Below, piece by piece: positions 2,766 through 45,600 of a stretch of 64,000 nt of DNA; the stretch's first letter is position 1, and the number at the start of each line of letters is the position of its first letter. The notes beneath the pieces are model-generated. The model was not told the origin of the DNA, did not search any database, and saw nothing but the letters and a program-made list of their open reading frames with translations. The stretch covers positions 55,097,356 to 55,161,355 of the forward strand of contig OZ024874.1 in assembly GCA_964017185.1 (NCBI GenBank). The letters are read 5' to 3'. Source of the DNA: Rugalucina vietnamica. Taxonomy: Eukaryota; Mollusca; Bivalvia; Lucinida; Lucinidae. The position numbers were made by a program, and so were the translations under genes.

Positions 2766-2810
2766 AAGTGTGGTGTTTATCAGTGCCAAGAACAGAAACT
2801 TGATCCAGAA

Positions 2811-3048
2811 AGAGCCATGTTGTGAGAAAACCAACAATGTAGTTTCCGAACAGGTCCGACATAAACCAAGCTGTACAAGTAGAGAAGATGGCCGGAGGCT
2901 GGAAATTTTGGATTTAGAAAGTAGAGGAATTGTACTATCTGTGTAGTGAAAACAAAGGCACTGATCAGCTTCGCAGTTACTGCAAAGCTGATCTGCGCCT
3001 TTGTTTTCGCGTACGCAGATTGTTGCTTTTCTGATGAGGTGGCTCAAA
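2811..3048 (-). mobile_element. MITE family A
   Basis: Full-length copy with the TTCGC-type hairpin core at about 2960-3010. The left end begins GAGCCATGTTGTGAG and the right end finishes TGATGAGGTGGCTC. Confidence 0.85.
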
Positions 3049-3177
3049 TTTTAATTAAATTCCATTATACAGCTGGAAAAGAAACAAAAATATTCTTGAT
3101 TAAATAAAATGGACGCCGAAGTGTTTGTTCATCTTGAAATTCTGCATCATTTTCTACATATTATTGAATGACCTGTG

Positions 3178-3299
3178 CCTTAACGCTTTCAGTTGCGCTT
3201 AATCATATGATCATCTTGCCACTATGTCTGGTGTGGTTCCAGCCCCACATGCGGCACATATGATATAATGTTCTGCTTGAGTGTGTGCCAGGTGGTTTT
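3178..3299 (+). mobile_element. SINE (family 1), 5' half, interrupted
   Basis: The sequence matches the 5' half of the complete SINE at 45062: TGTCTGGTGTGGTTCCAGCCCC (box-B region), then TTCTGCTTGAGTGTGTGCCAGGTGGTTTT. It stops at its T-run, where the 6.2 kb element begins, and resumes at 9481. The insertion therefore postdates the SINE. Confidence 0.75.
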
Positions 3300-3477
3300 A
3301 CTGTGTCGCATACTATACCATATTTTCTATTATTTGCCTTTTCCCTATTACCCGACCAAAAGTTCAGAGATCGACCCTGAAGGACGAAACGTCCATGGAA
3401 CGAAAAGACTCGGTACATAGTCGTACCGGAACCACCGACGTGTGCGCATGCGCAAGGCGCGAAATCAGATTTCCTTT
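3300..3477 (+). repeat. Left inverted terminal repeat of the DIRS-like element
   Basis: It begins ACTGTGTCGCATACTATACC and runs through TTTTCCCTATTACCCGACC to AATCAGATTTCC. It matches the complement of 9276-9453 with only a few differences, so the element is probably young. Confidence 0.85.
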
Positions 3478-4964
3478 TGGTCGCGAGCAACATGGACGCT
3501 GAAATTTGACTTGAGGAAAAATATTCTTTATTTTTCCATCATTTTGCGTCTTTAAATTACTTTTACTCGCGACCATTTTATACCCGATCAATTGTATTTT
3601 CAATCTATGAAGATGATTTGTAGAATTTATTTCTAAAATATCGAAATGTTTTTGCTTTTCGTACTTGGCATTTTCGGCCGTTTGTGTACGAAATTTTTCA
3701 TCTGAATTTACTTATTTTCTTTTCGTTCCAGGTGTTTGTATTCATATGTCATTACCTGTGAACGATTACTCTCTCTTACCAAAATTGGTCTATGGCGAAG
3801 GAAGATGTCCAAGGGTTGGTCTGTGGCGTAGAACGGTGAACACAATGTGTAATTCGGGGACTAGAGCCTTTTGGCGTGTTACTATCAGTGACGCTCGGGC
3901 TAAGGCGCCGCAGTAAACTGGTAGTGACCTAGTCCTCGACCCCGATTGACCAGAATCGGGGAAAGTCTCGTAACAACCTTGCGCTTCGACACGGCCAGGA
4001 TCAGGGTTTGGAGACGAAAATGTGAATCCCGGGAAATAGGGCTCTGGCTCTGAGTTGGATATTCCGGATCGTCAAACTGGCAGACCAGAACATTCTCTAA
4101 TGTTAAACTGGCAAGCTAGGACGAACCGACACCAATTCCCGTGATTCTGCGTAATGTCGGTACCGGTACAACTGCCTCTCACAGGTACACTGGTTACTGA
4201 CAATTTACCATTGGGAAATAGAAACGAGGTTCACTTCAAGACAATCGGACACTATTTCCCGGGACTGTGATCAAGTGCAGGACCGGTATTTCTGAATACC
4301 GGATCCAATTAACTAGTGTCTATCTTACGGTCTTGCTTTGTAAATAAACACTAGCTTGACTAATTCCCGGACTCCATTGGAGTTCTGGAAGGTATAAATC
4401 AACGCAAAGTGAATGCTTGGTACTTATTCATATACCCTCTAATTGTTCTGCAGATAATTCAGATCTGTTTGCAGTTCAAGTTAAATTTTCCACACAGTCC
4501 ATTGAGAGTTCGACATAAGAAGTCTCTTTAACAGATATCAACAATCCTAGATTAAGATCATACAGGACTGTCGATACATAATACAGTATATACTATTTCC
4601 CGGTATCTGTAATTACTTGTAGTACCGGCAACACTTTCTGCAGTACTGTCGGTTACTTATTACTGTTAAGTTGTTTAGTACTGGTTTTATTTTATTTTTA
4701 AGGACAAGACTATGTACTTATTCTCAGAACCAATAATTAGTATCAGTTTTGTTAAGACTTAACGCTTAACCGCTCGATACTATGTCAAGATATTATTTTC
4801 CGGGATTGTAAAGAAGAACTGTTTAAGCACTGGTCTATCGGCTTTTCTCTTTACTTTTATATATTATTTCTTTCTCTGGTAGATGTTATACAACTTCTCT
4901 GGTAGATGTTATACAACATATTGCAACTACTTTCTGAAGTCACGATTTTTCGGAAGTAGGTTTC

Positions 4965-4975
4965 AATATTAAAAA

Positions 4976-5007
<32 letters not shown>
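4965..5007. repeat. Poly-A plus (TA)n tract
   Basis: A run of A is followed by about twelve TA dinucleotides inside the DIRS-like interior. It is simple sequence with no sign of function. Confidence 0.95.
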
Positions 5008-8000
5008 CTGTCAGTTTCGACTCTGGTTTGCAATTTTTGCATACTCGTATTACCAACAGAGTCTTATGGGCTTAGTGAAATGTATTCAATTTCACTATCT
5101 GATTAAACTTTGCTTGACTGATTTTCAGTCTTTGCAAATCTGATAGCCTGATTTTTCAGTAGAATAAACATCAGGATTCTTTCAGATAGTCGGATCATTT
5201 AAATTAAAAATGATAAACAATAACGAATTTTGTTTCTCTTTCACCAAGACGGAAAGAATCATTATTTATTCAGAGATAATAGCCATGATTGTCTTCTTTC
5301 TTATATACTTCCTAACGTCGAGTTTTTAAACGGAGGTAAGATCTCTGTAAGACAGTCCCTCCGATTCTATTTGCTTTAATTTTTAAAGATGTACGCATAT
5401 ACTTAGGCTTTTGTCTTCTACATTTTATCTCAATATATACTCTCTAAACTATCGTTAGTATATGAAGTATTATTTTATTTTAACTGACATAGTATTGATG
5501 CATGGCAGTTTTAATATTTTACATCCTTGTTATAGTTGGATAACTATTCTCCAGGATTATGAATTTATAAACGAATATTTTTAATGGTCTAAAATCCAAA
5601 TGATTTTTACAATATCAAACTAAGTTGAGTCAGACGAAACTTCTGTTTTTCATTGCTACATCTGTTACATAAAATCAATGAATACGAGGTTTTGTTTGAT
5701 TGTGATAATAATTATCCTTTTAATCTGTTTTGGCAAAGTTTAGGATAATAATTTACACGAACTATTGTCAGACTGACAAACAATGAAACGCTATTTTGTT
5801 CAGTCTCACACTTCGTGTAAAACTGAATTCTCTCTTTTCACTTACGATTTGTGAAAAACATGAGATGTAATTATGATAGTTCTAGATAATTTGTTTTAAT
5901 TCCTCTTGTGACTTTCACGTGTAGCCAACAAGAGTGTCTTTACTTAAACAAATTTCTCTGAACAGAACTTTTAGCCAATCGCTATATAATCTGCGATTTT
6001 GTGTTATTCCTATATTCAGAAACTGTTTTATTAAGTATAATGCATTCGTTCAATACTTAACTCCAGTGACTGAATTTTTATCACTAAACGATACATGTCT
6101 GTCTTTATTAACCGGAATTCGTAAGATTACTAAACCGTGTTTTTCTCATATACTGCATCGGGGTGATGAGACGGACGAACAGTATCAAACACGGTAATTA
6201 TACAAATAGTGTTAATGACCTTTTGCGACAGCCGCAAAACGTTATTAATCTGGTCCGCGATTGGTAGAATCGAGAGAATGTTTCAATTTGGAGCCATGAA
6301 AACATTAATCTCGTTTATCCAAAAGTCGTTTTTGCTGCTCAACGTCAGGCAGTTTATTTTTGCAGTACTTTAAACATCGTTTCTATGCAGGATCGAACAG
6401 TCTTTAGACTCAATGAACGTCAACGACATGATCAGTTTTCGTGACTGCAATTTTTGTAGATAATGACCAACTACCGATTGAAATATCTACATACATTAAT
6501 AGAGATCATTTTTCATTTATCAGTCTCTTTGTTTTCAATTGGTTAGTCAACAAAGAGAAATCATCTCCTCCCTTCAGACTTGTCATCATCGGTAAGGGTG
6601 GAATTTTCTTGTTTTCGTTTTGAATCGAAGACTTTGAAATTCTACTATTGCATTCACATGAATGAATCCAATGAGAAACAATTACTGTAGATATTCAGGA
6701 GACTATTCTGTAACTCTGAATTATCTGCAATCTTCATTCTGTACTTTTGCTGATAGCTCAAAATAGTGTTCTTTGATACATTGTTCACTAACTGAGACAT
6801 TATGGCTAAATTTATGTGCTTTAAAAAAAAAAAAAAAAAAACACCCGTACAGGTTTAGTCCTTGGTACTTCTGTCCTGAACCAAAACCAAGAGACTACTA
6901 TAAGAATGCGCCTACAGAGGTGCTGCATAGCCTGACTTTGGTGTCAAGGATTAGTGAGTCATCAGTGGACTTTGTAATGTTACTTAACTGCTTATAGTTT
7001 GAAACATTGCAAATGTCTTTTTGGATGAAAATGTTTATATTTTCTTCTATTTATTCTTATTGTCCCTAATTAACTGCTTACTGGGACATTGAATTGCAAT
7101 ATTTCTTTTAACACCATTCAAACGTTTTCTTTGGTGAAATACCTTACAATTCCATCATATAGAAGGTTATCTTTTTGGAAAAATATTACCTTCTAAGTAC
7201 ATGAAAATCTTTGTTTCTTAGTAACCTTTTGAACAAGGTTAATATAGTAGCCTTCTCATGTACATTGAGATTGGCTATTTCTTTTAGGAACTTTTCTCAA
7301 TGTCTCTCAGTACAGTTCCAAATTTATTTCAAGTGATGGCCTAAACAATAGTTAGAAATGAGGCACATCTATCAATTTTATAGTTATTAGTATACATCAA
7401 TAATGTAATCACTAATAAACAAGGTTTATATACATGATATAGTGATACGTATGTGATACTAAGTAACACAGTAACTTATGTTTCTTGGTATCTTTTATTG
7501 GAACATATTTTATTTTTGGTGTGTAATACAAATAAGTTTGTCATAAAACACCTATCTACTATAAAATTACTTTCTTTAGATAGATTCTCTTTTGATTAAA
7601 AATCTGATCTTTCAGAAATTTCTGCTGTCGTCCTGATGATTTATCAATAGGACACTTCATGTATATTTAACTATAATGTCACATGTTGCATGTTCATTTA
7701 CCTGTAAAGTGGAATTTGTTTTCCCAAACACAATTTTCACTGACCTACATAAAAAGAGTTTGTTTGAATATAAGTGGATAAAATTAGAAACTGTCCATTT
7801 ATAAAGATACCTTCTATAGTATAGATTCTAAACATTTACTTATCAAATGTTTGTCATTCTTTTATTAATTTCCCAAGTATAATATCCAGTATTGTCATGG
7901 GAAATACTTATCAGTAAATTACTGGGGATTTATCTTGAAACAGTATTACAGATCATCTCTAAACTAAAGAACATGTTCTATCAGTATTTACAGATTATTT

Positions 8001-8793
8001 ATACATGATTACAGTACTATACAGAAATTTCATAAAATAGGGTTTTCTTCATTTATTTTATATAGAAATGTGAATCAAGACCTTAATTATGTGACAATGG
8101 AACAGATAAGAGATGCAGTTTATCTAACTTTCTGTTTCTAAATTCAGAGTTCAGTTTTGTAGGATTACTGAATTTCATATATGTATTTGAGGAAAATTTG
8201 GTGATCAGGCCTATAATTCTCATTTACAATTTATATAAGTTTTTGTATGTTTTCATTTTTGAACATATACAAAAGAACTATGTGATATCATTTTACATAA
8301 ATTTCTGTTTATCACAATGGTTACATCCAATTTTGTGATAATTATATTCTTAAAGACTATAAACAACACCATTTGCAATTAATTTTGTTTATGGCTATTT
8401 TACTTGAGAATTCAGCTTGATTCTCTATCAAGCTTCCTCTTCACTTGAAAAGTTTAATGCTCAGTAAGAAAGTTCTGTACTAACTTTTTGAATTAAATAT
8501 TCATAACCACAAGGAGATAAGGACATTTCCGAAAACAAATATCTCAAATTTGGTTATCATTCATCATCAGTCTGTTGACAAAGATATACAATCGTAAGGC
8601 AATTAAGTTGTGACCTTGATTTGCCTTTGAAAATACTTTGAAAACATTTATTTAACTCATGGTACATGTATTTATAAATGTCAACATTTTGGTCCATTGG
8701 TTCCATTCGTTTACTCTCTCTTTATTTTCAATAATTGACTAGAGTAAATAATATTTCGATTTTAAACCTACCTTTCACGATTCAAAAGAGAGT

Positions 8794-8821
8794 GGGGGGG
8801 GGGGGGGGGGGGGGGGGGGGG
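8794..8821. repeat. Poly-G run
   Basis: An uninterrupted run of 28 G residues lies inside otherwise AT-rich sequence of the element. Such a run can form G-quadruplex structure and is prone to sequencing length errors. Confidence 0.95.
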
Positions 8822-9110
8822 TCATGATTCTGACTCCACCTCATTATGGAAACTTATCTGGACAGAACATCTATTAGCCTATGCTGAATCATTGAAGGTT
8901 ATTGGGTGTTATATGGTGATTTCCAGAGAGGTTTTAATGAATGTGTAAAGATTATGAATTAATCTATCAACACATTATTTTTATTTCTACAAGGTTCTTT
9001 TTATCGAGATCATTTATCATGATCTACTTAACCTTTTGGAATTTTCTCTGGAAATTTACTTCAGAGTCGACCCTGTTTATGAGGGATCCTCCCACCAAAT
9101 GAGTGATTCT

Positions 9111-9208
9111 GGCAAATAATAGAAAATATGGTATAGTATGCGACACAGTAAAATAGAAATTTTTCAAGTAAATTTCAGTTTACTGAGCATACTTACCATA
9201 TTTTCTAT
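9111..9208. repeat. Internal complementary region (circle-junction copy)
   Basis: Positions 9111-9153 are an exact reverse complement of 3296-3338. Positions 9154-9208 are an exact reverse complement of 9422-9476. The two pieces meet at AAAA (9150-9153), the complement of the TTTT found at both outer junctions. This two-ended composite is what separates DIRS-type termini from a simple fold-back element. Confidence 0.8.
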
Positions 9209-9275
9209 GCTAAGTTCCCTCCTCAAACCACCCCTCATCCTTCTCTATATATATTAAGGAAATATATATATTGCA

Positions 9276-9476
9276 AAGGAAATCTGATTTCGCGCCTTGC
9301 GCATGCGCGCACGTCGGTGGTTCCGGTACGACTATGTACCGAGTCTTTTCGTTCCATGGACGTTTCGTCCTTCAGGGTCGATCTCTGAACTTTTGGTCGG
9401 GTAATAGGGAAAAGGCAAATTATAGAAAATATGGTAAGTATGCTCAGTAAACTGAAATTTACTTGAAAAATTTCTA
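9276..9476 (-). repeat. Right inverted terminal repeat with end extension
   Basis: Positions 9276-9453 mirror the left terminus. Positions 9449-9476 (ending ACTTGAAAAATTTCTA) are an extension absent from the left end but represented in the internal complementary region. Confidence 0.85.
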
Positions 9477-9480
9477 TTTT

Positions 9481-9575
9481 TCTCAGTGTTCTCCCATTTT
9501 CGTCTCACTGATTTGTCCATCTCATATGAGCTGAAATAATCTTTAAAAGAATATAAAACTGAAACAAAAAATAGA
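9481..9575 (+). mobile_element. SINE (family 1), 3' half
   Basis: It reads TCTCAGTGTTCTCCC, GTCTCACTG-TTTGTCCATC and CATATGAGCTGAAATAATC, ending in an A-rich tail. This is the missing 3' half of the SINE that stops at 3299. Confidence 0.8.
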
Positions 9576-9821
9576 TTTATCATCTTTCCAACAGAAAAAC
9601 TGTCAACAAGGTTGCTGGGCATGTCACACAAACCTAAAATACTGGTATTTCATATAACAATGTCAGGTTTACAATTTAAATGAAAATTCAAATGCCCCCA
9701 TCATACTGCACAGACATTTGTTGCCGATTAATCTGTTCCTGGATCATGTGTATGACTCCGCTATGTGTTTTCCTATTTGACTGGTGTGAAGCAATGCCAT
9801 TACCATTGCAATACAGCACAT

Positions 9822-10113
9822 TACAAAAACTTGCCCATGCAATAAACAGTGATTTTTTTAGCTTTAAAAATTGAAAATTTTCAGCTGAAAAATTTTGATA
9901 TTTTTCTTATTTTTGCTCAAAACATAGATTGAGGGTACACGTTAGAACCGCCTCGGCACGTTAGAACCGCCTCGCCGAGGCGGTTCTAACGAGTACCCAC
10001 AATCTATGTTTTGGAGCAAAAATAAGAAAAATAGGTGTACCCCTGCATACCCCAGTTTTGCTATATAATAGTGGGGTTCAAGGGGGTATACATTACACGG
10101 ACATGTTTTCCTG
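9822..10113 (+). mobile_element. MITE family B, with internal micro-duplication
   Basis: Near complete copy. The central stem is preceded by a second CACGTTAGAACCGCCTCG, a local duplication of about 21 bp at 9938-9978 right at the palindrome centre. Confidence 0.85.
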
Positions 10114-10261
10114 ATGATGGGTATTGAGTATGTGTGTGTGAATATATTAAATGATCGAAAAAAATCAAAAAATTTGCTTTTGTATCCAAGAAACCTTTGG
10201 CCCCTCTCCATGAAGAAACAGGCTGCAAGATGCCTTTGCACAGGACTGGAAACCAAACATT

Positions 10262-10412
10262 CACTTTTATGCAAGAGGGTTCTAACAAGTACCCACAATA
10301 TCTATGTTTTGGATCATAAATATGAAAAAAAGGTATACCCTAGTATTACTATATAAAAGTGGGGTTTAAGGGGGTAAACATTTCAAGGACATGTTTTCCT
10401 GTTGATGTAAGA
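10262..10412 (+). mobile_element. MITE family B, right half
   Basis: Only the right half is present: GGTTCTAACAAGTACCCACAA through GGTATACCC and CTATATAAAAGTGGGG to ACATGTTTTCCTG. Confidence 0.75.
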
Positions 10413-10499
10413 CAGAAAAACAATTGAAAAACATAAGCTTGAGATGATAGAGGAGACGGTGGGTAGGGAAAGTTTTCGTTTCGCACAACACCCTCCACA

Positions 10500-11220
10500 T
10501 ACTAGGTTTGATACTATGGGTGGCTTCTTTGATCAATATAAAGAGCTTCTAGGCACGTTGTCGCCCTGTGATATGGTGCATTTGTCCTCCAGAAGCCGTT
10601 ACGTATGTTACCCATTCAAACCAGAAATGTGCTCTTAAGTTTGTAAAATACACTATGAATCTCTAATCTAAATTCCAAATCTAAATGTATCAATATCATC
10701 TGATGGAAGAATGTTACGGGCACATATATTGATATATTTAATCATTTTCATGCATCGATGGTGTTACGTATGTTACATTTTCAAAACAGCCTGTGTAAAT
10801 GTTAATTACAGAACAGTAAGCTATTTTAATATACTTCTCTTTACAAATTTCACTTTTAATACACTACGGGTGGCTTCGTTGATCAATATAAAGATTTTCT
10901 ATGCACGTTGTCGCCCAATGGTATGGTGCAATTGCCTTCAAGAAGCCGTTACGCACGTCGAATGTTACCCATTCAAAACAGAAATATACTCTAAGTTTGA
11001 AAAATGCACTATGAATCTCTAAAATAAATTCCAAACCTAAATATATTAATGTCATCTGATGAAAAAATGTTAATGGCACATGTGTTGATACTTTAATCTT
11101 ATATATGCATCGATGGTGTTACGTATGTTACATTTTTAAAACAGACTGTTCAGAGTTTAATTACAGAATAGTAAGCTATTTTAATATACTTTTCTTTGCA
11201 CATTTATACTTTAGATACAC
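10500..11220 (+). repeat. Direct tandem duplication (about 360 bp, two units)
   Basis: Units at about 10500-10860 and 10865-11220 share GGGTGGCTTC.TTGATCAATA, GTTGTCGCCC, GATGGTGTTACGTATGTTAC and GTAAGCTATTTTAATATACTT. Each unit carries two of the TTACGTATG motifs. The duplication lengthens the left subterminal region of the hAT-like element. Confidence 0.8.
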
Positions 11221-12014
11221 TTGTCTAAAAGACACTTATTCCTTTTCGTTTACAAACCTGAAAAACACTAATCATCATGTCATTCCTGAGTCGAAAGATA
11301 GAGCATATAGTCCACAGTAACTCACTTCAGATTATGAAAGAATAATGTGTTTAAAGTCAACTATGTACAGACAAGTTTGAAGAAAAGAAGAAAAATATAT
11401 ACAATTATTTTGCTGTAGATCAATAACATATATGCCTTCTTAAAGTTGAATGCTCACTGCTTTGCCAGAAATGTGTACTTTTGATTGGTAAATATGGTAA
11501 CGTATGTAACACATAATTATTTTAAAAAATATCAAAAATCAGTTATAATGATTTCAATGCCAATAAAATGCTCATCGCTGTATGTAATTATGATTTAGCA
11601 CTAATTTAGAAATCATATAAGATATAGCAAATATTCAAGGGTGTAATCCGGTTGTCAGTGAACTTAAAGCGCACACACCCAAACCACAAAACCCCAAAGC
11701 ATGTTTTACACCATTGTTAGTATCCAGTGTTATGAAATGACATTATCAAGACCGTCGGTCACTATTTCTTATGTTGCCTTTCACAAAGCTTGCCAATATT
11801 AGTAAGCAAATATCAATGCAGGTGACGGGCGATTTAATGGTAACGTATGTAACACATTTAATTTTTCACTTAAAATTTTAGGTGTTAAAACCTGAGGAAA
11901 ACAAATAATAATAAGATATAATAATCGTCACATTTAGATTGTATTTTCTATTTCCGGATATTGAAATGACTCGACGGCCATACAAAAGCACAACTCTGCG
12001 TATGCTAGTTCATT

Positions 12015-12180
12015 TTGTCTGGGTTCGGGCACATGTGAGACAAGCCAAGTTCTGCTTGCGCGTGTGCCAGGTGTTTTTTTTCTCGGGGTTCTCCCGTTTT
12101 TGCCCCACCTACCGGTTGGCCCGTCTCATATGAGCTGAAATAATATTGAAAGGGACGTTAAACGGAACAAAAAATGTTTA
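12015..12180 (+). mobile_element. SINE (family 1), 5'-truncated
   Basis: It starts in the box-B region (TGGGTTCGGGCACATGTGAG) and runs through ACAAGCCAAGTTCTGCTTGC and GGCCCGTCTCATATGAGC to an A-rich end. Confidence 0.85.
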
Positions 12181-12359
12181 GTCCTTGGTCATGAGCACTG
12201 CTTCAATATAAGTACCATTGATGTTCCAGACATTGCCTAATGTGGTTGTTTTGTTTGATTTTGAGTTGATGCTTAACAGCATAGCTAACAGCTATTGTCA
12301 TACTGAGACATTGACTCCATTTTATGGGACTTTTGCCCGAAAATCCGATGCCATGACAT

Positions 12360-12590
12360 CCAAACAATGCTTTGAATCTAACCACCCAAGTAAGCCACTA
12401 CGGCTTATACGTATGGATGGTTTGATTTTAAAACACTTTTCCTGATCAGGCTCAGACCTGAGCGGTTATTCAGTAATAAGATGGTCAGTAAGTAGCGTAT
12501 AAGCTATGCCTGGAGGCAAAAGAAACCCATCTATTTCTTAAGGACCCGATGAGCGGGGCCCATAATCCCACCCGACCAACCTTCTGAGGG
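12360..12590 (+). repeat. Repeat shared with 63690-63870
   Basis: GCTTATACGTATGGATGGTTTG, TTTAAAACACTTTTCCTG, GACCTGAGCGGTTATTCAG and CTGGAGGCAAAAGAAACCCATC reappear in inverted orientation near 63690-63870. Unclassified. The following 12590-13930 has no recognised gene. Confidence 0.6.
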
Positions 12591-13929
12591 ATTCTGCTTA
12601 GGCTGATAGGGTTGAGCGTTTCTGCTAAGGCTGAAAACATGTTTTTGAAGTTTTCAAGTTATGAATGTGTCATCAAATGATCATGCTTTGGTGGTACATT
12701 TTCATTTGTGTAGCGCTAATGGCAACAGAACAAGTGACGGACACTATTTACCCTTGAACCAGATTGCCCAGCAGATGAACAGAATCGGCAAAATGTTTTT
12801 CGTACACCTTCTTATGTGTTGTGGGGAGTGTTATCGTCTGTTTGCACAAGGTATTTTGTGATTGATCGCTTTTCTCAGCATTATTCCAAGCTTTCGTTTT
12901 ACCAATGCCATTGTGTGGAGTCTCACCTAAACTGCCTTATTGTGTAGTCATACCTTCTATTTTCTTGAAGATATGGAATGGTCGAGAGTCTCACCAGGAC
13001 ATCAAAGCTTGCTTAAAACGACAGACTGTTAGTATCGTGGTTTTCAGGATTTCCAGCGTGGAACCATAATGTATTGCAATCATTTGGCTAGAGTAAACAG
13101 CAGCATAAAACCAAGACATCTGATTCAGATGATTGTACCGTCAGAAGCATCGTGGTTGTTATGAAAATTCGCGTATCTGTGTCTTCATTGTCTGAAGTGC
13201 AGTTACGTCATCCCCGACAAGAAAGCATTTTCGTGTAAAAACGCATACACGTTGTTTGCACATCCTGTTCTATGTTCGGATTTCAAACCGAGGGCCCTCA
13301 AGAAATTCACATTTTGTGCTATTACTGCTTTACATTGGATTTTGCCACTCTCGGGGAACTGGTGTCGCAGGGCTAGATAATGTCCTTTCTCTTTCATCCG
13401 ATCTGATGGATTTACTCTTTAGGTATATATCAAACACTACATCAAATCAACGGTTTCGAAAGGCGCACACATTCAAGCTGTAAGGTATACCACATATATT
13501 TTAAAATGAATGGGTCCAGGAGTTTGAGGATAATATCCGCATCTAGTTGGATGCAACTGTCAGTGTGATATTTGCGAAGTCTTTGTCTTCCTAAGTCATT
13601 AAGTTCGCACAGTGTGAAAGATTCATCGTGAATCGTGGATCTTTTTCAAGAACACAGCATGGCACCGAAGAGGTCGAACAACACAAACTCGTAATCAGGA
13701 GCGGACGCTTTAACAATGGTTCACCAACTCATAATATATACCTTACAGTGCCCTATATGAAAATGGTGTTACATACGTTACCATGAGCATACTGACAAGT
13801 CACCAGTGGGTCAACATATTCCAAACACCTTACAGTGTTCTATGCGAAAACATTTGCAGATAATTATGTGAGACCACATTCATGTGAGCTGCAGCGCGCG
13901 AAAACCCCTCTTCCGACAATATTCCTTCT

Positions 13930-14085
13930 ACACAGTCACAGAATTTAGACGCTTGAAATTTCGGATTTAAGAAGAAGTTTGAATTATCTGTGTAGAGTAA
14001 ATAAGTGTGCTGATCAGCTGTGCAGTAACTGCATCTTTGTTTTCATATAGGAAGAATCTGGTTTTCGCATGAAGCGGCTCACTAT
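13930..14085 (-). mobile_element. MITE family A, truncated
   Basis: The left end is missing. The hairpin has lost most of its right arm (CTGCATCTTTG), so this copy can no longer fold fully. Confidence 0.75.
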
Positions 14086-14984
14086 AAATACATTTATAAT
14101 CACCAAAATGAAATCTACACATGTATGGACATTAAGGTGTTACATACGTTACCATGAGCATACTTGCAAGTCACAGGCTGTGTGTCTTAGCACATTAAAC
14201 ATGTACTTATCATAGGGTGTGTAAAATAGAACTAAATAATTTACAGAAACATATAACAGTTATTCATTTTGATATTTTTGTTGAAACGCCTACTTTTCAA
14301 CCCTTAGGAAATGTTAAATTATTTACATAAAATAAATTAAATATTTAATATAAATATATGATTTTGTGTAAAAGCCAAGTTGAACTATTGGTCAGTAGGA
14401 AAGGACCTTTCGTTTTTGGAATATGAAGAAAGAAATGCCAAAAACAAAAACGTTTTTGAACCAAAACCCCTATTTTCACGCCATGTATATAGAAGTAACG
14501 TTTGTAACACCGTACAATGTCTTATTTCAACTTTTAAAGATCATAAAGCATGTCCGTTAAATTGTTCTAGTATGTGATATAATTAATGTTGTTGCATGAT
14601 TAAAGTGGGTGGAGCATAGAAGGTTTCGCTATTTTGTTGGTACAAATATATTTTGAACATGTAACTTATGTAACGAGCTACAGAAATATTGTGCACCACT
14701 TGCCGGGGCGACAACGTGCCTAGAACTCATCTAGGATGACCAATGGACCAATTGCATACTGCAAACAAAGTATGTGGAGGGTGTTGTGCGATTTCGTTAA
14801 ATACGGTAGATACAGAATCTAGCGTCTCCCCTATGAGGAAAAATCGTGTATTTTTCTTAAATTGGTTGATAAAGAAACTACAACTTTCAGAAGCAGTAAA
14901 ATAGTCACTTTATTTAGACTGATCACAGGCTCGGCAGTGGAACATCCATATAAGACAAGAGAAAACTTGTCTCTGGTGGTATTT

Positions 14985-15211
14985 GAGCCCCATCATGAGA
15001 AAACCAACATGGTTTCCAACCGGGTCTGACACTAACAGGCCTTTACATTCACAGAAGAAAGCTAGAATCTTGAAATTTTGGGCATATTCAGAAGAATTGT
15101 ACTATCTGTATAGCGATCAAAGGCTCTGATCAGCTGTTCAGTTACTGCACAGCTGATCTTCACCTTGCATTTCGCATTGGCAAAATTCTGTTTTTCTCAT
15201 GATGTGGCTCA
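14985..15211 (-). mobile_element. MITE family A
   Basis: Nearly full length, from GAGCCCCATCATGAG to CTCATGATGTGGCTC, with the TGTGC-type hairpin partly eroded (CTGTTCAGTTACTGCACAGC). Confidence 0.85.
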
Positions 15212-15335
15212 TTTTTGTACAGCCAAAGATGCCTAGAGACTTGAAATTTCAGATTTATGAAGTACAGGGAGAATGCAGTGTGATTTCTGAAACGCTGATG
15301 TGCGTCTTCGCATTTGCATATCATACTTCGTGAAG
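15212..15335 (-). mobile_element. MITE family A fragment
   Basis: It picks up inside the element (TTGTACAGCC.AAGATGCCTAGAGACTTG) directly after the previous copy and ends near the hairpin. The palindrome core is deleted. Confidence 0.6.
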
Positions 15336-15395
15336 TATTGTGCGCACTCGTGCATAACACGCACTCAATTTTTGGGGGTCAAATCTGGTGTAAAA

Positions 15396-15575
15396 AGTCA
15401 AAGTCAGTAACTGCGAAGCTGATCAGCACCTTTGTTTTCGCTACAGGGACAGTACAATTCCTGTTCTTTCTAAATCCAAAATTTCCAGCCTCTAGCCATC
15501 TTCTGTGCTTGTACAGCTTGGTTTGTGTCAGATCTGTTCTGAAACAACATTGTTTTCTCATGTGAAGGCTCAATG
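15396..15575 (+). mobile_element. MITE family A, 5'-truncated
   Basis: It starts in the second half of the hairpin (AACTGCGAAGCTGATCAGC) and ends CTCATGTGAAGGCTC, just downstream of the UTP11 stop codon. It may be transcribed in the UTP11 3' UTR. Confidence 0.8.
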
Positions 15576-15616
15576 CTGAAACAGACTGCCCTATATTGGC
15601 CCTAACACTGCGGGTG

Positions 15617-18600
15617 TTATCTCTTCCTCTGAAATGTCCATTTATACTGTGCTGGAGCTGTCTTGGTTTCCTCTGATACTTTTACTTTCTCTGATTTAGT
15701 GTCCTGTGGTGAAAGAAAAAAAAATCTTCAGGCAAAATAATCTTAAAGCCACAATGAATTAACCCTATAATTTGACATGATTTAATTTAAACATCATGTA
15801 CTCATACAATCATTCTTCACTGTTACTACATTGTATCAAGTGTTCAAATGGTGTATAACTAAAACTGCACGAAGAGTATACTATTGTTTGGATACACAAG
15901 CCATTGCAGTTTATTTAAACTAACAGAAAAAGTTACAAGCTTCTCATACTAACAGACTTTAATGATTTGTAAAATGCAACATGCTATTTCACAATAGTTC
16001 TCTAAAGTCCAATTTTGTCATGAACAACCAAGCAAATAGCAGTTTAGCAATCCAGGTGTTTCAAACATCTGTTCACTAGTTGTCAAAAAGGTGAAACTGA
16101 CATTTCCTGTCCAATAGTTTTATCAACCTTGAAATGTACATCACCACCTAATATATCTCTGATTGGTCACAGTAAGGTGGAATTGACAGAGGTTGATTTC
16201 TCTTCAATAATTCCATTGGCTGTTTGAAAATAATGAAACAGGCCAAGGTGAATGTTTGACATCTATTGACATCTATATAGAGAAAAAAAACTTTTTCTAT
16301 ATTTAGAGTGCACCTGGATGACTGTTGTGGACTATCAATTTCTTGTCTAAATGACAACTGATTTTGAAATGTCTGAAACTTTTGAATTGCTAAACTGGTA
16401 TTTGTGCGGTTGCAATAATAGAAAACTAAGGTCATATGTTGCAAACATTCAGTATACTCAACTAGGGGCTCTTGTCACTGAGTGGTTTCATTCCTGATCT
16501 TAATCATTTGAGCATCTCACTGATTGGTTTGAGCCAGGCACAAGGCAGATGTGAGAGAAGCCAAGTGAATTGCAGTTTTGCCAGGTGATTTTTCTTTGGT
16601 CCTCATGTTTTTACCCACCTATCGATAGCCCATCTCATGTAACAAAAATAAATCTTGACAGGGATGTAAAACTGAATAAAAAAGTGTACTCACTGTAAGT
16701 TGTTTCTTTCTCTCCATCTTCTGTGCTATTATACTCAGTTCTCTCTCTCTTTCTATCCTTTTCTTCAATTCTTTGTATTTCTTCTTTCTTTTATTTGACA
16801 TTTCCTACATGAGAAAACCAACATTTGCATATACGAAAACAAAGGCGCAGTTCTAACTGCAAAGCTGATTGCCACCTTTGTTTTTGCTACACAGATACTA
16901 CAATTCCTCTGCTTTCTAAATCCAAAATTATCAGCCTCTAGCCATCTTCTGTGCTTGTACTGCTTGGTTTGTGTCAGACCTGTTCGGAAACCACATAGCT
17001 GGTTTTCTTGCAAGGTGGCTTGAATAAAGGTTTACCATTATAATGACATGAACATTTACAAATTAGACTGCAGAGCATACTTTGGCAAAGAAAATTTGCT
17101 TTTGTAATATGAGCCTTTGCATGACAAAACAAAACCAACAATCTGAGTTTCTTACCAGGTCTGACAAAAACTGGCCTGTACAGCCACAGAAGCAGGCTAA
17201 ACACTTGAAATTTTGACTTTAACAAGAAGGGGGATTGTACTGTGTAGCAAAAACAAAGATGCTGATCAACTGTGCAGTTACTGCACAGCTGATCAGCATC
17301 TTTGGTTTCTCATATGCAGTTTGTTGTTTTTTCTCATATTGAGGCTCATATTGTTTCAGCCAATGGCACTATGAAAGACAGGAAATTCTTTAGAAAAGTA
17401 ACCATCAATATACTAATGCTCTTAGGTTTTCATAATTCTTTAATTTCCTTTTTTTTCTTCGCTTACAACATCAAATAACCCATAGGAAAACATGAATGTG
17501 AAATGTATACCCCTTAAACCCCACTTTTATATAGAAAAACTGGGGTTTGCAGGGGTATTCCTATTTTTCTTGCTTTTGCTCAAAAACATAGATTGTGAGT
17601 ACTCATTAGAACCGTCTCGGCGAGGCGTTTCTAATGTGTACCCACAACCTATGTTTTAAGCAAAAAAATATCAAAAATTTTCTACTGAAAATTTTCCTTT
17701 CTTACAACTTTTAAAAATGTCTGTATATTGCATGGCATGTTTTCGTAATGACATACCTCAAGACCGTCAGGATCTAGTGAAGACAGTTCTCCACTTTTCA
17801 GTGTGTCTAACTTTGGTCTGTTGAATGTTCTGTTTACGAGAGATGGGTGGGTCTTAAAATACTTGGCTGCATCAAACTCTTTCACTGAAACACAATTAAA
17901 ATGTTCCTCTATAAATAATGAGCCACCTCATGAGAAAACCAACAATCTGCATATGCAAAACCAAAGACACAGATCAGCTTCGCAGTAACTGTGAATGTGA
18001 GCGTCTTTGTTTTCGCTACATGGATAGTAGAAAGTACAATTCCTCTACTTTCTAAATCCAAAATTTCCAGCCTCTAGCAATCTTCTGTGACTGTACAGGT
18101 GGGTTTGTGTCAGGCCTGTTTGAAAACCACATTGTTGGTTTTCCCATGAGGTGGCTCAATTGTTAAAGGGAAGTTCAAATTTTCAGCTTATCTTTACAAT
18201 CATGGGCATCAAAGATTGTTTGTTTGTATTGAGGTTTGACATCCCAGTCAACAATGTTGGGATGGAGACAAAACTTCCTGTGTATTATCAGTACTGTGGA
18301 AAGTTGGTGTCTAGCTCAAGGACACAACAGGGTGGCCAGTGTGGAGATTGAACCCAGAACCACTAGATCTGGAGTCTGGTGCTTTACCACCAGGCCACTG
18401 TGCTTCCCTCATCACTAATTTTCAGAAAATGTTCAGAGTTTAACAAAGGTGATATATAGTCTAATTAATTTTAGTTAATCTGAAATATTGTCTCAACACT
18501 GTGACTGGGTTACATATAGCAATGATACATAAAACAAAACATCACAGAAATGAACAAATGACCACAAAAACTGGTTATGTTAAGGCCCCTTTTCATCTAC

Positions 18601-25430: not shown

Positions 25431-26163
25431 TGTATGTATTTATAAAATTTCTGTGTTGTATACATATAGTTATTTTTCTTCTAATTTGTGCATGCACTGT
25501 GATAATTGGGTTATTTTACACATGGTTGTCGAAGTAAAAGCCCTACAGGCACACTGGTCAATGTAAACGCATAGGCAACATCTGAAACGCACAGGCTCTG
25601 TTATTAGGATGCATAGGTCACCTCATAAAATGGAAATGAAAAAATAGACCCAAATTTACTTTTTCATGTAACGATGTTTTGTAGGTTAAAATTGCCTTTT
25701 ATCTACCGATTTCTCTCTTAAATACACGATCGAAGCTCTTGTTCTGCAAAGAACATTGAAAGCCAAGATAATGAAGTCGAAAGACAAGTACCCAAATAAT
25801 GTCACAACCTTTTAAGAAAAAATATTCAAGAATTTCATTTACAATGCACCTGGCTTCTAAATTCAAAACAACGCAGATGCGTCTCACGAAATTTCAAATT
25901 GATGAAAAAGAATGTATTACATGGTATTTTATGCGTAAGGCTTATAATCAGATGACACAACCAGCGTTTTAAATGAGAGTGGCTAGAAATATGGCCATGA
26001 AGAATACCTAGACCTATGATTTTGTAGATAATCCTACAAAGTTTACAAATATACGTTTGGTTTCAAACTTGCGACAGGAGCAATGTTTTGTCACATCATT
26101 TAACTCATATTATCACGTTAGACAACATTCGTTACGAAATACGATGCATCACCCTTTTAAAAA

Positions 26164-26775
26164 GGTACAAGTAGGCAAAGATCAGGAAAAGGCGCAATCA
26201 GAAAAAGATTCCCACTCCAAAAACCGAGGCGGGAAAAAACCAAACTAACAATCAGGTACTTATACCATGAAACATATCGTAAGCCGAATGAGCAGCTATT
26301 TTCCCAATACATGTAGGTGGCCACTCAGTTACCTTAACTTAACTAAAAATATGAAAACATACATAAGGCGCCAACAGCACAAAAAAAATTTTATACACCA
26401 AGACATAAAACAAAAAGAACCACCACAGAAGTATCGACTTGGAACGATCAGTAACACAAAGTTACTGGCGGGCTTAAACCGGTTTTACATGGCCATAACC
26501 TCACCCTCAGCTTCTGCAGTGGTTCATAACATTTAGTTAGTTATTCGGTCCTCGTGGTGAATCTCTAACTAGTCAATGAATCATCAAGAACAAACAAATA
26601 AATCATGATAAACATCCTGATGAATCAAAAACCAGGACTCACAGACTGAGTAAGCTGCCCGACGATGGAGATCCCTGGGCGCCGAATAACCTACTAACTC
26701 CGGAGCAAAAGAAAAACACCAGTTGGACCCCGGTGGGCCAAGCAACAGACAAGAAGCTCCGGCCCCAACCAACTA
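26164..26775 (-). mobile_element. 5'-truncated LINE tail inserted in the left arm
   Basis: The break points are defined by comparison with the uninterrupted right arm (27510-27535). The inserted piece shares CATATCGTAAGCCGA.TGAGCAG and CAGAAGTATCGACTTGGAACG with 29070-29250, the 3' region of the LINE lying just downstream, so it is the same LINE family in minus orientation. Confidence 0.7.
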
Positions 26776-27149
26776 AATACGTTTTTCATCAAATAGTATT
26801 ACAACACATGTTGCCTTTAAAAGATACAACGATCAGGTTTTCATGCCAGCTTTGGTTTGATACAGAACAGATGATTCGAGTAGTTAGCTATCCGTTTTGT
26901 ATGATGATTGATCGCATAACCAGGACAGTATCTACCATAATAAAATCCGCTTTGTTCGTTTCTGAAATTGGCTCATGTTAGCAATAAATCTGCAATAAAC
27001 ATGAGCAATAAATCTGCAATAAGATTTTACATGCATACATGTACATGTAAAAAGTTGCAATAAAATATGTTTAAACTGAATAAGATTTTAGGTTCAAAAA
27101 TGAAGGTAGAAATTTTGCATTAATAGTCAAACAGTCATAAAGTAAAACA

Positions 27150-27290
27150 TTAATTGACTTCAATGTCGGTAGACATAAGGATTTACCTACCCTCAAAAAC
27201 TATTCACCTCGACCTTACGGCCTCGGTGAACATACGAATTTTTATCGGGTAGATAAATCCCTATGTCTACCTCACTGAAGTCAACAATTC
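27150..27290. mobile_element. Small MITE at the centre of the inverted duplication
   Basis: TTGACTTCAATG.CGGTAGACATA.GGATTTA and TAAATCCCTATGTCTACCTCACTGAAGTCAA are inverted ends of about 35 bases around a roughly 70 bp core. Confidence 0.75.
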
Positions 27291-27754
27291 TATAATATTA
27301 CACATGAGCCAATTTCAGAAATTTACAAAACGTATTTTATTATGTGAGATACTGTCCTGCTTATGCGACCAATCATCACATAATTAAAACGGATAGCTAA
27401 CTTCTCGAGTCTTCTGTTCTGCTATCAAACCAGAGCTGGCATGAAAACTGCCTGATCGTTGTATCTTTTAAAGGCAACGTGTGTTGTAATACTCTTTAGT
27501 GAAAAACGCATTTTAAAATGGTGACGCGTCGTATTTCGAATGTTGTCTAACGTTATTATTTGAAATGATGCGACAAAACATTGCTCCTGTCGCAAGTTTT
27601 GAAACCAAACACATACAAGTCTGTAAACTTTGTATGACGATCTACAAATTTAAAGGGTCTAGGTGATTCATCATGGGCACATTTCTAGCCACTTTCATTT
27701 AAAACGCTGGTTGTGTCATCTGATTATAGGCCTTACGCATAAAATACCATGTAA

Positions 27755-28544
27755 TAGAGCTGTCATGGATTGGGCATTTTACATATCGATATATCGGTGA
27801 GAAATATTGTGATATATCGATACACATATCGATATACAATATTAATATACAAGTAATTTTTCAACAAAGTGTTATGTAACTTCAATAAACACATATTGTT
27901 TTCTTATGCTACTTAAGTTTGTATGTATACAATATAATACTCCCTAGCCTTCTGTAACCTTGAATTTAGTCTCACCAAAAACAATTGTAAGATAAAGCTA
28001 AAAAATAATTTTAAATTTTATTCGTAAAACTTAAAGAGAAGAGACATATATTACTTAAGTTAACATTTAACGGACATAACGGACATGCTTGCACATCATA
28101 ACTAGCCTAATGTGAATGAATGTTGCCTGTCTGGCAATTTGGCAAATTGACATTGCTAAAAATTAAGGATGGAGTATTTGATGATACGGATTTAATTTCT
28201 CCAAAAAAAACGTGCTGTTAAGAGCTAACGCCAACCCTCAGTTAATGATTAGACTCGGTTTAAATGTATGAAAACATTGTGCAGTGGGTATTTAATAACA
28301 CTGCCTCATGTTTTATGTAAACATATATACATGTAACAAGACATCTCTAATTTATACAATATAAGCTATCGTTTTTTGAAAATATTTGGGAAAAATAACT
28401 TGAAATACTATATGTCCTTGTCTGTATCAAACTATATACTTGTACCATTTTTCAATATCGATATGTCTCTTTTCTGTATCGATATGAATATCGAAGCTCA
28501 TTTTTATCGATACATCAATATCAGCGATATCAATGACAGCTCTA
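27755..28544. mobile_element. hAT-like MITE (790 bp) with perfect 8 bp target duplication
   Basis: Inverted ends are TAGAGCTGTCAT and ATGACAGCTCTA. Both flanks are CCATGTAA (27747-27754, 28545-28552). The matching site in the other arm of the inverted duplication (about 25916-25932) has a single copy, which confirms the empty site. The ends fit the hAT consensus. Six TATCGATA octamers cluster near the ends, three on each side. No transposase frame. Confidence 0.9.
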
Positions 28545-31540: not shown

Positions 31541-31559
31541 TACTACTCAACGGTTTGAC

Positions 31560-33053: not shown

Positions 33054-33147
33054 TATGAACTTTTGTGATTGTGGTTTATCATAAAAATTGTTAAATTCCA
33101 GAATGAGATAGACATAATCTGTATGAATCTGTGCCAAGCCTGACAAG

Positions 33148-42600: not shown

Positions 42601-45600
42601 TACTTTGTGGGAACTCTTTAGAAGCTCCTCGTCGAGGCAGTTCTATCATGTACCCACAATGTATGTTTTGAGTGAAAATATTTAAAAAATAAAAAAAAAA
42701 AATTCCAATGAAATTTTCAATTTTTGCTTCTGAAAAAAAGAAAAAAAAAAACAAACAAAAAAACTATATATTGCATGGGCAAGTTTTTGTAGTTGCACCA
42801 ATGATTGGGTATCACTTAACATTATTTGGCAGCAATAATTGGTATTCACTATTTCATTGATCACATGACTCTCTTTACTTTGCAAGATGCCCAGTTGCCA
42901 CTTTACTACAACTTTGGGTTCCTGCTAGTATGAAAATGCCTTCAGCGGCACATGCATAAATTGAGCCGCAACAGAAGAAAACTGGTCTTCGGGGTTTCTG
43001 ACCGGGTCCGACGCAAACCAGCCTGTGCAGTTTCAGAAGAATGCTAGAAGCATTAAATTTCGGATTTATGAAGTAGAGGAAGTGTACCATCTATGTAGTG
43101 AAAACAAAGGCGCTGATCAGCTGTGCAGTTACTGCACAGCTGATCTGCGCCTTTGTTTTTGCATAGGCAAAATCAGGTTTTCTCATGACAGGGCTCAGTT
43201 TACTTCAGGAAATGTAACATCATACATTGCCGAGATTACTCGTCTCAGGTCACTTATTAAAGAATCAAAATGTGTATGCATGCTGCACAGACTACACAAA
43301 TATGAGATCTATCTTCAACTGAAAATGAGAGTCATTTAGAAATGCACCAGACATACAAATGAGCCAATGCATGGGAAAACCAACAATCTGCATAGGCGAG
43401 AACAAAGAGGCAGATCAGCTTTATCAGTGCCTTTGTTTTCGCTACATGGATAGAACAATTCCTCTACTTTCTGAATGCAAAATTTCCAGCCTCCATCTTC
43501 TGTGACTGTACAGCCCGGTTTGTGTCGGAGCTGGACGGACCCCAAATTGTTGGTTTTCACACACACAGGCTCAAATGACATGTCATTGGTCATAATCTAC
43601 ACTTATTTTGTGATGCAGCATTTTCAGTATACTGACTGTTTTCAATTGGAGAACCTGACAACCAAAGAATTATTTGGTTTATTTGTCATGTCACACCACT
43701 CATTTTTTGGTTTGAAGCACCATGAATAAGCTCCCAATGCTTATTATTATGGTGTGCCGTTTTACTATTTATTCCCTATTTTTGGATATCCATAATTCAT
43801 TTAAGGATATCCATAATTCATTTATGGATATCCTTTATTCATTAATGGATATCCTAAAATAATTAAGGATATCCATTAATATTTTTGGATATCCTAAAAT
43901 GAATTATGGATATCCATAAATGAATTATGGATATCCATAAATGACTTATGGATATCCTTAAATGAATTATGGATATCCTTAATTGAATTATGGATATCCT
44001 AAAATACATTTTTGGATATCCAAAAATCATGATGAATTATGGATAGCCACAATTTGATTTTTGGATATCCAAAAATCGAATTATGGATATCCTTAAATCA
44101 GCTTACCGGTATTTAAGGATATCCTTAAATGTATTTTAGGATATCCAAAAATAATCTTAAATTAAGGATATCCATAATTCGATTTTTGGATATCCATAAT
44201 TCTATTTTAGGATATCCTTAAATGATCTGATTTAAGGATATCCGTAAATCGATTTTAGGATATCCATAATTTATTTTTAAAAATATTTCTTTTCTATAAT
44301 GATTTCTCCAGTGTAATATGCAAACGCTAACGTAAAAAAAAAAAAAAAAGTTGTTTATTCAACCACACCGGATGCCTTCATTCTCTGACTAGGGAGAAAT
44401 CATTGTATTTCTTAGGCATGTACATCATTTTTGTGATTTAAGGATATCCTTAAATGAATTATGGATATCCTAAAGTACAGTCCTATTTTAGGATATCCAT
44501 AATTCATTTATGGATATTCATAAATCGAATTATGGATAGCCAATATTAGCCCGATTTTAGGATATCCTTAAATTGAATTATGGATATCCAAAAATAGGAT
44601 TGTATTTTAGGATATCCATAATTCGATTTTAGGATATCCTAAAATCAATTTATGGATATCCAATATTCAGCCTAATTAAAGATATCCATAAATCGATTTT
44701 AGGATATCCAAAAATGAATTATGGATATCCAAAAATGAATTTTGGATATCCAAAAATGAATTTTGGATATCCAAAAATGAACTTTGGATATCCAAAAATG
44801 AATTATGGATATCCATAAATAGGGAATAAATAGTAAAACAGCACCCCATATATTATCACTGTTATACTAACTGCACAAAAACTCTTACATTGACAGAATA
44901 TTTGCATTTTATGTATCAGCTGGGTCTGGTGGATAATTCATGACATTGTGTTTGAAGCAAAAATGAAATTTAAAGATAATAATAGCTGTCAGAGACAGAG
45001 AAATTAATTTTTTTTTATCAGGTTTATAGATTACCTCATGGACCTAAATTATATATAAAGCGGCCCCCGTGGCCGAGCGGTTAAGAGCGCTGTTTCTTAA
45101 TCACCTCACGGCTGTGTCTGGTGTGGGTTCGAGCCCCGCTCTGGCCACATGTGAGACAAGCCAAGTTCTGCTTGCAGGTGTGCCAGGTAGTTTTTTCTCG
45201 GGGTCCTCCCGTTTTCGCCCACCTACTGATTGGCCCGTCTCATATGAGCTGAAATAATCTTGAAAGGGACGTAAAATTGAATTAAAAAAAAATTATTTGT
45301 AAGATTTAAAGTGGTTTTCAACATGTGTGTATATTTATGGCACCATAATGAAATGACCAATCTTTAAGCATTCAATGATAATTGCAACAAAGTATCCCAG
45401 GCCATATGGCTACTTATCTTAAGCATTCTTAGTGTTTTTTTTTTTTTAAAAAATGGTTTTATACTTTATATTTTAAATCAAATACAATCACAGGTTATTG
45501 TAGTTCTGTACCGCCACATATATAAATGCTGACTAGGTCATAAATGATGGCAATAATCTTTATGGGTACATGTGAGGCACGTCATGAGATGTGACTTTTG

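What the first reader, a model, noticed from the sequence alone, without database searches (positions are those of the whole stretch)
3296..9480. 6.2 kb element with DIRS-type termini and internal circle-junction copy
Inverted ends, a roughly 28-base extension on only one end, and an internal segment that is an exact complement of both ends joined together (43+55 nt through a shared AAAA) are together the hallmark of DIRS-type tyrosine-recombinase retrotransposons, not of MITEs. The 43- and 55-nt matches were read directly; the class is inferred from known DIRS-1 architecture.
Basis: partly seen in the sequence, partly recalled or inferred. Interest (0 to 1): 0.75.

Follow-up and report, generated by a model that had tools for sequence, protein, structure and literature searches.

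The report
Non-coding DIRS-type retrotransposon in a SINE
A 6.2 kb jumping element sits inside an older repeat; it carries the end signals of a DIRS-type retrotransposon but no recognisable gene, so it probably moves by borrowing another element's enzymes.

Summary
The element is 3296-9480 (6185 bp): inverted ends (160 of 162 nt complementary), a 28-nt extension on the right end only, and an internal copy complementary to both ends joined (43/43 nt left, 59/59 nt right, overlapping on AAAA). A 15-nt core occurs once in each end and in each half of the internal copy, and nowhere else in the window. The element splits a SINE-like repeat; two other copies of that repeat show the unoccupied site. 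The architecture matches published DIRS1-like elements closely.

DIRS genes were not found: six-frame reading with stops masked gives no RT, RNase H, methylase or recombinase, while the same method finds an RT fragment with an in-frame stop elsewhere in the window. The ends are nearly identical, so the interior was very probably non-coding when the element last inserted.

Best reading: a large non-autonomous DIRS-type retrotransposon, comparable to a LARD, mobilised in trans. Its interior folds into hairpins more than its composition predicts, equally on both strands; this is unexplained, and other repeats in the window do the same. No host genome was held, so copies and an autonomous partner are untested.

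The parts
3296..9480 (+). whole element, 6185 bp; + strand is the conventional DIRS orientation (internal complementary regions and extension at the right end)
3296..3477 (+). left terminus: TTTT start, divergent part 3296-3315, conserved ITR 3316-3477
9275..9480 (-). right terminus: conserved ITR 9275-9436, then divergent part and extension, ending in TTTT
9453..9480 (-). right extension (28 nt), with no counterpart in the left end
   Evidence: global alignment
9111..9153 (+). left internal complementary region, exact reverse complement of 3296-3338
9150..9208 (+). right internal complementary region, exact reverse complement of 9422-9480; overlaps the left one on AAAA (9150-9153), the circle-junction letters
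3316..3330 (+). 15-nt core TACCATATTTTCTAT, one of four copies (others 9119-9133 -, 9194-9208 +, 9422-9436 -)
3443..3454 (+). TGCGCATGCGCA in the left ITR, an exact match to the NRF1 consensus YGCGCAYGCGCR (consensus recalled); a second site, TGCGCATGCGCG, at 9298-9309 in the right ITR; possible promoter signal
   Evidence: these two sites only (each matching on both strands), 0 in 100 shuffles
3478..9110 (.). interior without recognisable coding sequence; folds better than shuffled sequence on both strands
3222..3299 (+). left half of the host SINE-like repeat split by the insertion (3296-3299 TTTT shared with the element)
9477..9572 (+). right half of the same repeat (9477-9480 TTTT shared with the element)
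12028..12175 (+). unoccupied copy of the same repeat (GGTG TTTTTTTT CTCGG)
45112..45289 (+). unoccupied copy of the same repeat (GGTAG TTTTTT CTCGG), with a tRNA-like head upstream (by eye)

Best explanation
A large non-autonomous retrotransposon with DIRS-type ends. Shown: the cis anatomy (ITRs, right extension, two overlapping internal complementary regions, four copies of a core), insertion at a T-tract inside a SINE-like repeat, no recognisable coding sequence. Inferred from the published DIRS model: a transcript that starts in the left end lacks part of the ends; enzymes from an autonomous DIRS element elsewhere in the genome copy it; the internal complementary regions serve as template to restore the ends and hold them together as a circle joined through AAAA/TTTT; the recombinase then inserts the circle at a matching T-run, leaving no further duplication. 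The non-coding interior travels as cargo, as in the LARDs of LTR retrotransposons.
For: Exact internal copies 43/43 and 59/59 with shared AAAA. Termini dimensions (divergent 20, conserved 162, extension 28, ICRs 43-59) close to AcDIRS2 (26, 136, 28, 39-60; start TTT, junction AAA) and GaDIRS1 (19, 148, 27, 46-56) in the rows of Table 3 of PMC3266345 that I saw. Core of 15 nt in all four segments, where that paper reports at least 10. Unoccupied site in the 2 repeat copies that align across the junction, E 2.7e-31 and 3.7e-23 (a third, partial match at 16630-16683 covers only the right half). No RT/RNase H/methylase/recombinase Pfam match in 6 of 6 frames at E<=1; the same method finds RVT_1 (E 2.8e-4, below Pfam's own cut-off) at 30317-30559 (-), a stretch with an in-frame stop. 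Longest stop-free run in 3478-9110 is 99 codons; 66 of 100 shuffles reach it (3490-9105). Two differences in 162 ITR positions and none in the two internal copies mean little time for decay since the last insertion.
Against: No second copy and no autonomous partner has been seen, so movement in trans is inferred from one copy. Exact-pattern scans of viral and prokaryote contigs found nothing, which is expected for an animal element and says little. The T-tract means that a 4-bp TTTT duplication made by a DNA transposon would give the same empty site; only the internal complementary regions and the unequal ends argue against that. Gene conversion between ITRs could make the insertion look younger than it is. 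Stops are about 2 SD fewer than in shuffles in two forward frames.
Confidence: 0.85

Rival explanations
1. A once-coding autonomous DIRS element that decayed in place after insertion.
For: DIRS-type ends are present and 6.2 kb is near the size of coding DIRS elements (up to 5997 bp in the rows of PMC3266345 Table 3 that I saw). Two forward frames have about 2 SD fewer stops than shuffles.
Against: ITRs differ at 2 of 162 positions and the internal copies at none, too little time to erase RT, RNase H and recombinase beyond recognition; no Pfam match; stop codons per frame 100-140, all within 2.3 SD of shuffles.
Confidence: 0.06
2. A TIR-type DNA transposon or foldback element with a 4-bp TTTT target duplication.
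For: Long inverted repeats, and TTTT at both borders.
Against: The outermost bases are not inverted repeats of each other (28-nt extension on one side), and an internal segment that reproduces both ends joined through AAAA has no role in that class.
Confidence: 0.03
3. A short non-autonomous DIRS-type element that was later filled by nested insertions of ordinary, hairpin-rich repeats, so the interior is a mosaic and not the cargo that moved.
For: Repeats in this window are hairpin-rich: 110 repeat-bearing 300-nt windows have mean z -2.92, and the interior does not differ from them (p 0.33). The interior has A19 and (AT) tracts that could mark old insertions.
Against: No part of the interior matches another place in the window at E<=1e-3 apart from simple A/AT tracts (0% covered by repeats), and I saw no insertion borders.
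Confidence: 0.06

Closest known systems
DIRS1-like retrotransposons (e.g. AcDIRS2 of Anolis, GaDIRS1 of stickleback, LgDIRS2 of Lottia)
   Same: ITRs, right extension, two overlapping internal complementary regions, 3-4 bp junction, shared core, similar lengths of these parts (PMC3266345 passages)
   Different: no recognisable RT/RNase H, methylase or recombinase, nor any long ORF
LARDs (large retrotransposon derivatives, e.g. Sukkula) of plant LTR retrotransposons
   Same: core domain without protein coding, assumed to depend on trans-complementation, described as specifying well-conserved RNA secondary structures (PMC7215508 passages)
   Different: DIRS-type ends in place of LTRs; an animal genome (recalled judgement); conservation of structure between copies could not be tested
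SIRE, the short derivative of VIPER in Trypanosoma cruzi
   Different: SIRE is about 435 bp (185 + 30 + 220 in that passage) and corresponds to a region of VIPER split direct repeats; here 6.2 kb with ITRs and internal complementary regions
Non-autonomous Cryptons (CryptonI-1N1_RPro, CryptonA-1N1_OL)
   Same: non-autonomous derivatives of elements that use a tyrosine recombinase (PMC3212892 passages)
   Different: DNA transposons in which no terminal repeats were found

Membership tests
DIRS1-like retrotransposon | inverted terminal repeats | tested here: met
   162 nt, 160 complementary
DIRS1-like retrotransposon | left and right internal complementary regions overlapping on a circle junction | tested here: met
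   43/43 and 59/59 nt, overlap AAAA
DIRS1-like retrotransposon | extension on at least one terminus, matched only in its own ICR | tested here: met
   28 nt on the right
DIRS1-like retrotransposon | core of at least 10 nt shared by both ITRs and both ICRs | tested here: met
   15 nt, 4 of 4 places
DIRS1-like retrotransposon | insertion without target duplication beyond the junction letters | tested here: inconclusive
   unoccupied site agrees, but the T-tract hides whether TTTT is shared or duplicated
DIRS1-like retrotransposon | encodes RT/RNase H (often with a methylase) | tested here: not met
   no Pfam match in six frames at E<=1; the same method found RVT_1 elsewhere
DIRS1-like retrotransposon | encodes a tyrosine recombinase | tested here: not met
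   no positive control for this domain was run
LARD-like non-autonomous derivative (by analogy) | large interior without coding capacity between intact termini | tested here: met
LARD-like non-autonomous derivative (by analogy) | interior conserved between copies, with conserved structure | not testable with these tools
   only one copy available; no host genome held
Ngaro/VIPER-type tyrosine-recombinase retroelement | split direct repeats | tested here: not met
   ungapped direct repeats in 2800-10200 are at most 29 nt; the one gapped direct match at the right end (9111-9176 / 9414-9474, 81%) follows from the ICR resembling the end; the long repeats are inverted
TIR DNA transposon / MITE | inverted repeats at the very ends | tested here: not met
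   outermost 28 nt of the right end have no counterpart on the left

The most novel reading that the evidence does not exclude
The 5.6 kb interior is not passive filler but a selected, hairpin-forming sequence along its length, a structured non-coding genome carried by DIRS-type ends; because both strands fold equally well, selection would act on single-stranded DNA as well as RNA, for example on the single-stranded cDNA stage proposed for DIRS replication.
Probability: 0.12. Interest if true: 0.75.

Novelty: new variant of a known kind. Interest (0 to 1): 0.45.

Why it matters
How DIRS elements restore their ends and circularise is a model that a 2017 review calls experimentally not fully proven (PMC5633606 passages). 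A young element that keeps only the end signals would help define the minimal cis requirements and show that the machinery can work in trans. Searches of the held open-access library for phrases naming non-autonomous DIRS, Ngaro or YR elements gave 0 papers; Repbase and most subscription journals could not be searched, so such elements may be catalogued there. The SINE-like unoccupied site gives a clean view of one insertion.

Tried and rejected
Decayed coding DIRS: rejected on end identity and absence of any domain trace. Independent right-hand MITE: rejected because both flanks form one SINE-like copy. RNA-strand-specific structure: not supported; + and - strands fold equally well relative to shuffles (difference z 0.1) and the share of G-U pairs is below that of shuffles; smaller windows lean slightly to + (-1.32 against -1.08 at 120 nt, -0.83 against -0.55 at 60 nt). 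Known RNA families: none at gathering scores in the window; 4 weak matches at E 1.8-4.4 in 3200-9600, far below their gathering scores, taken as chance. tRNA detection in the SINE head by Rfam (E<=1) and ARAGORN gave nothing, so tRNA origin rests on reading GTGGCCGAGCGGTTAAG...GGTTCGAGCCCC by eye. Related sequences outside: exact patterns in viral contigs and genome contigs gave 0; a 56-aa peptide from the 99-codon ORF gave no relative in viral contigs; blastn of the interior against phages gave one 78-nt match, 78.6% identity, E 3e-4, taken as chance. Host gene identification: a coiled-coil ORF looked like CEP162 from memory; Pfam and PDB gave only weak matches. A forward-strand Pfam scan of 9700-18000, run as a further control, found nothing and so says nothing about power.
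Full report
Observation. The inverted ends 3316-3477 and 9275-9436 are complementary at 160 of 162 positions. The segment 9111-9153 is the exact reverse complement of 3296-3338 (43/43), and 9150-9208 is the exact reverse complement of 9422-9480 (59/59); the two overlap on AAAA at 9150-9153. A global alignment of the two ends leaves 28 nt of the right end without a counterpart on the left. A 15-nt core, TACCATATTTTCTAT, is found in each end and each internal copy and nowhere else in the window, against 0 in 100 shuffles.

Borders. BLAST of the flanks against the window shows that the left flank up to 3299 and the right flank from 9477 match one and the same repeat at 45112-45289 and 12028-12175. 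When the flanks are joined, both copies align across the join (E 2.7e-31 and 3.7e-23); a third match, 16630-16683 (E 0.001), covers only the right half. The unoccupied copies read GGTG-T8-CTCGG and GGTAG-T6-CTCGG; the occupied one reads GGTGG-TTTT-[element]-TTTT-T-CTCAG, counting the T's shared with the element on both sides. The copy at 45112 is preceded by a tRNA-like stretch, so the repeat looks like a tRNA-derived SINE; this is by eye, since Rfam and ARAGORN did not call it. The T-run means I cannot tell a shared TTTT from a 4-bp duplication of TTTT by this evidence alone. The internal AAAA junction and the unequal ends favour the first.

Comparison with DIRS. The passages of PMC3266345 that I saw describe DIRS1-like ends as ITRs with a divergent and a conserved part, in most elements a right extension only, left and right internal complementary regions overlapping on a 3-bp junction, a shared core of at least 10 nt, and no target duplication. 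This element has divergent 20, conserved 162, extension 28 and internal regions 43 and 59. AcDIRS2 has 26, 136, 28 and 39-60 with start TTT and junction AAA; GaDIRS1 has 19, 148, 27 and 46-56. The five mollusc elements in the rows I saw have longer extensions (46-49) and right internal regions (67-88).

Coding content. Reading all six frames of 3296-9483 with stops as X gave no Pfam match at E<=1 except one at E 0.15 to a plant cysteine-rich domain (13 bits against a cut-off of 34.1), which I take as chance. The same procedure on 30200-34500, six frames, found a reverse-transcriptase fragment (RVT_1, E 2.8e-4, 21.1 bits, below the Pfam cut-off of 29.6; 81 residues at 30317-30559, - strand) and one chance-level match (DUF1242, E 0.48). 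That stretch carries one in-frame stop, so the method can see a damaged piece of RT. No such control was run for a recombinase or methylase. The longest stop-free run in 3478-9110 is 99 codons; one of 115 codons lies partly in the left ITR (3367-3711, - strand). For 3490-9105, 66 of 100 shuffles reach 99. Stops per frame are 107, 100, 124, 133, 129, 140, against shuffle means of 122-144 with SD 8-11; two forward frames are about 2 SD low, which I do not regard as a coding signal. 3-base periodicity exceeded the background 95% point (1.49) in 2 of 18 windows, those starting at 6190 and 8290 (2.18 and 2.25; background maximum 4.20). The ends differ at only 2 of 162 positions, and one of these differences (3331) is also present in the internal copy and so may be inherited. 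The interior can therefore hardly have lost a gene set since insertion. This step is inference and assumes no gene conversion between the ends.

Interior structure. The interior folds better than dinucleotide-shuffled sequence. In 18 windows of 300 nt the mean z is -2.36 on + (17 of 18 negative) and -1.91 on - (16 of 18 negative); three host stretches in the same call gave +0.06, -0.72 and -1.38 on +. In 120-nt windows the means are -1.40 for 92 element windows and -0.77 for 959 others. Eighty 300-nt windows without within-window repeats have mean -0.38; 18 drawn at random from them reach -2.36 with frequency 1e-4, but neighbouring windows are not independent. Summed over 25 windows of 200 nt without simple tracts, energy is 8.1 SD below shuffles on + and 7.3 on -, with no strand difference (z 0.1) and fewer G-U pairs than shuffles. 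Perfect stems of at least 9 bp within 150 nt number 13 against 5.8 expected (SD 2.0); stems of at least 8 bp number 35 against 20.8 (SD 4.8). Of four host control segments one (60.96-63.5 kb) is also high (17 against 8.6) and three are not. Weaker or contrary results: short perfect hairpins (stem at least 7, loop 3-12) number 17 against 5.65, but 6 of the 17 are registers of one AT tract, and the three sub-regions free of it give 3 against 0.6, 4 against 2.3 and 3 against 2.35; by the same count, host segments gave z of -1.1, -0.1, 2.4, 3.0 and 3.2 (the 3.0 segment lies within the 3.2 one). 110 repeat-bearing windows average -2.92 (median -1.4), and the interior does not differ from them (p 0.33). 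So hairpin-rich DNA is common in this window. The signal is present, is not specific to one strand, and is not explained. A short motif, CTATTTCCC, occurs 4 times in 3490-4860 and in none of 100 shuffles, and TACCGG recurs between 4161 and 4623 and is in both ITRs; CTATTTCCC was picked as the top of all 9-mers, so its enrichment is descriptive.

Possible promoter. TGCGCATGCGCA at 3443-3454 and TGCGCATGCGCG at 9298-9309, one in each ITR, are the only exact matches in the window to YGCGCAYGCGCR, with 0 in 100 shuffles. That this is the NRF1 consensus is recalled. Passages of PMC5633606 say that DIRS-1 LTRs act as promoters, that the transcript lacks parts of the ends, and that the internal complementary region is thought to restore them.

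Mechanism. The best reading is trans-mobilisation: transcription from the left end, reverse transcription by a DIRS element elsewhere, end repair and circularisation on the internal complementary regions, and insertion at a T-run by that element's recombinase. Shown here are the cis anatomy, the occupied and unoccupied sites and the absence of recognisable genes. The rest is inference from the published model, which PMC5633606 calls experimentally not fully proven.

Novelty. LARDs are the same idea in LTR retrotransposons (PMC7215508 passages). SIRE is a short derivative of VIPER (PMC6681497 passages), and non-autonomous Cryptons are known (PMC3212892 passages). Phrase searches naming non-autonomous DIRS, Ngaro or YR elements found 0 papers. 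Wider searches gave 37 papers (20 listed; passages of 7 opened), 3 papers (passages of all 3 opened) and 6 papers (passages of 1 opened); the passages are, and none of those I saw describes a non-autonomous DIRS element. No paper was read whole. Repbase, where such entries may well exist, was not available. I therefore call it a new variant of a known kind, with the reservation that it may be catalogued somewhere I could not look.

Limits. No host genome is held, so copy number, partner and conservation are untested. The host is an animal, perhaps a mollusc, by the look of the repeats; this is a recalled judgement, not a result.

Noticed in passing
25639-28828: A series of nested inverted repeats, 83-96% complementary, makes much of this 3.2 kb a large palindrome-like structure (arms 25639-25689/28778-28828, 25689-25926/28543-28780, then pairs stepping inwards to 27168-27199/27240-27271).
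   Followed up: partly
2809-3051 and more than 15 other places, e.g. 36737-36981, 39744-39986, 46861-47105, 58506-58750: An abundant ~240-nt repeat on both strands with an internal palindrome (GCGCAGATCAGCTTCGC...GCGAAGCTGATCAGCGCC), MITE-like.
   Followed up: no
1190-1365, 9941-10116, 38507-38682, 55617-55792: A repeat of at least 176 nt whose core resembles the palindrome GTTAGAACCGCCTCGGCGAGGCGGTTCTAAC (exact in the copy near 55.6 kb).
   Followed up: no
56550-57863: A tandem array with a unit of about 49 nt (19 copies listed in family D7).
   Followed up: no
30317-30559 (- strand): Reverse-transcriptase fragment with one in-frame stop, RVT_1 E 2.8e-4, below the Pfam cut-off; used as control. 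An ORF at 31882-32232 (-) looks like a LINE C-terminal tail from memory only (no Pfam match).
   Followed up: partly
4028-4800: Recurring short motifs (CTATTTCCC, TTTCCCGG, TACCGG) inside the element, on both strands.
   Followed up: partly
8794-8821: A run of 28 G inside the element, and A19 at 6823-6841.
   Followed up: no
58059-58814: ORF with coiled-coil-like sequence, possibly an exon of CEP162 (recalled); Pfam and PDB matches only weak.
   Followed up: partly
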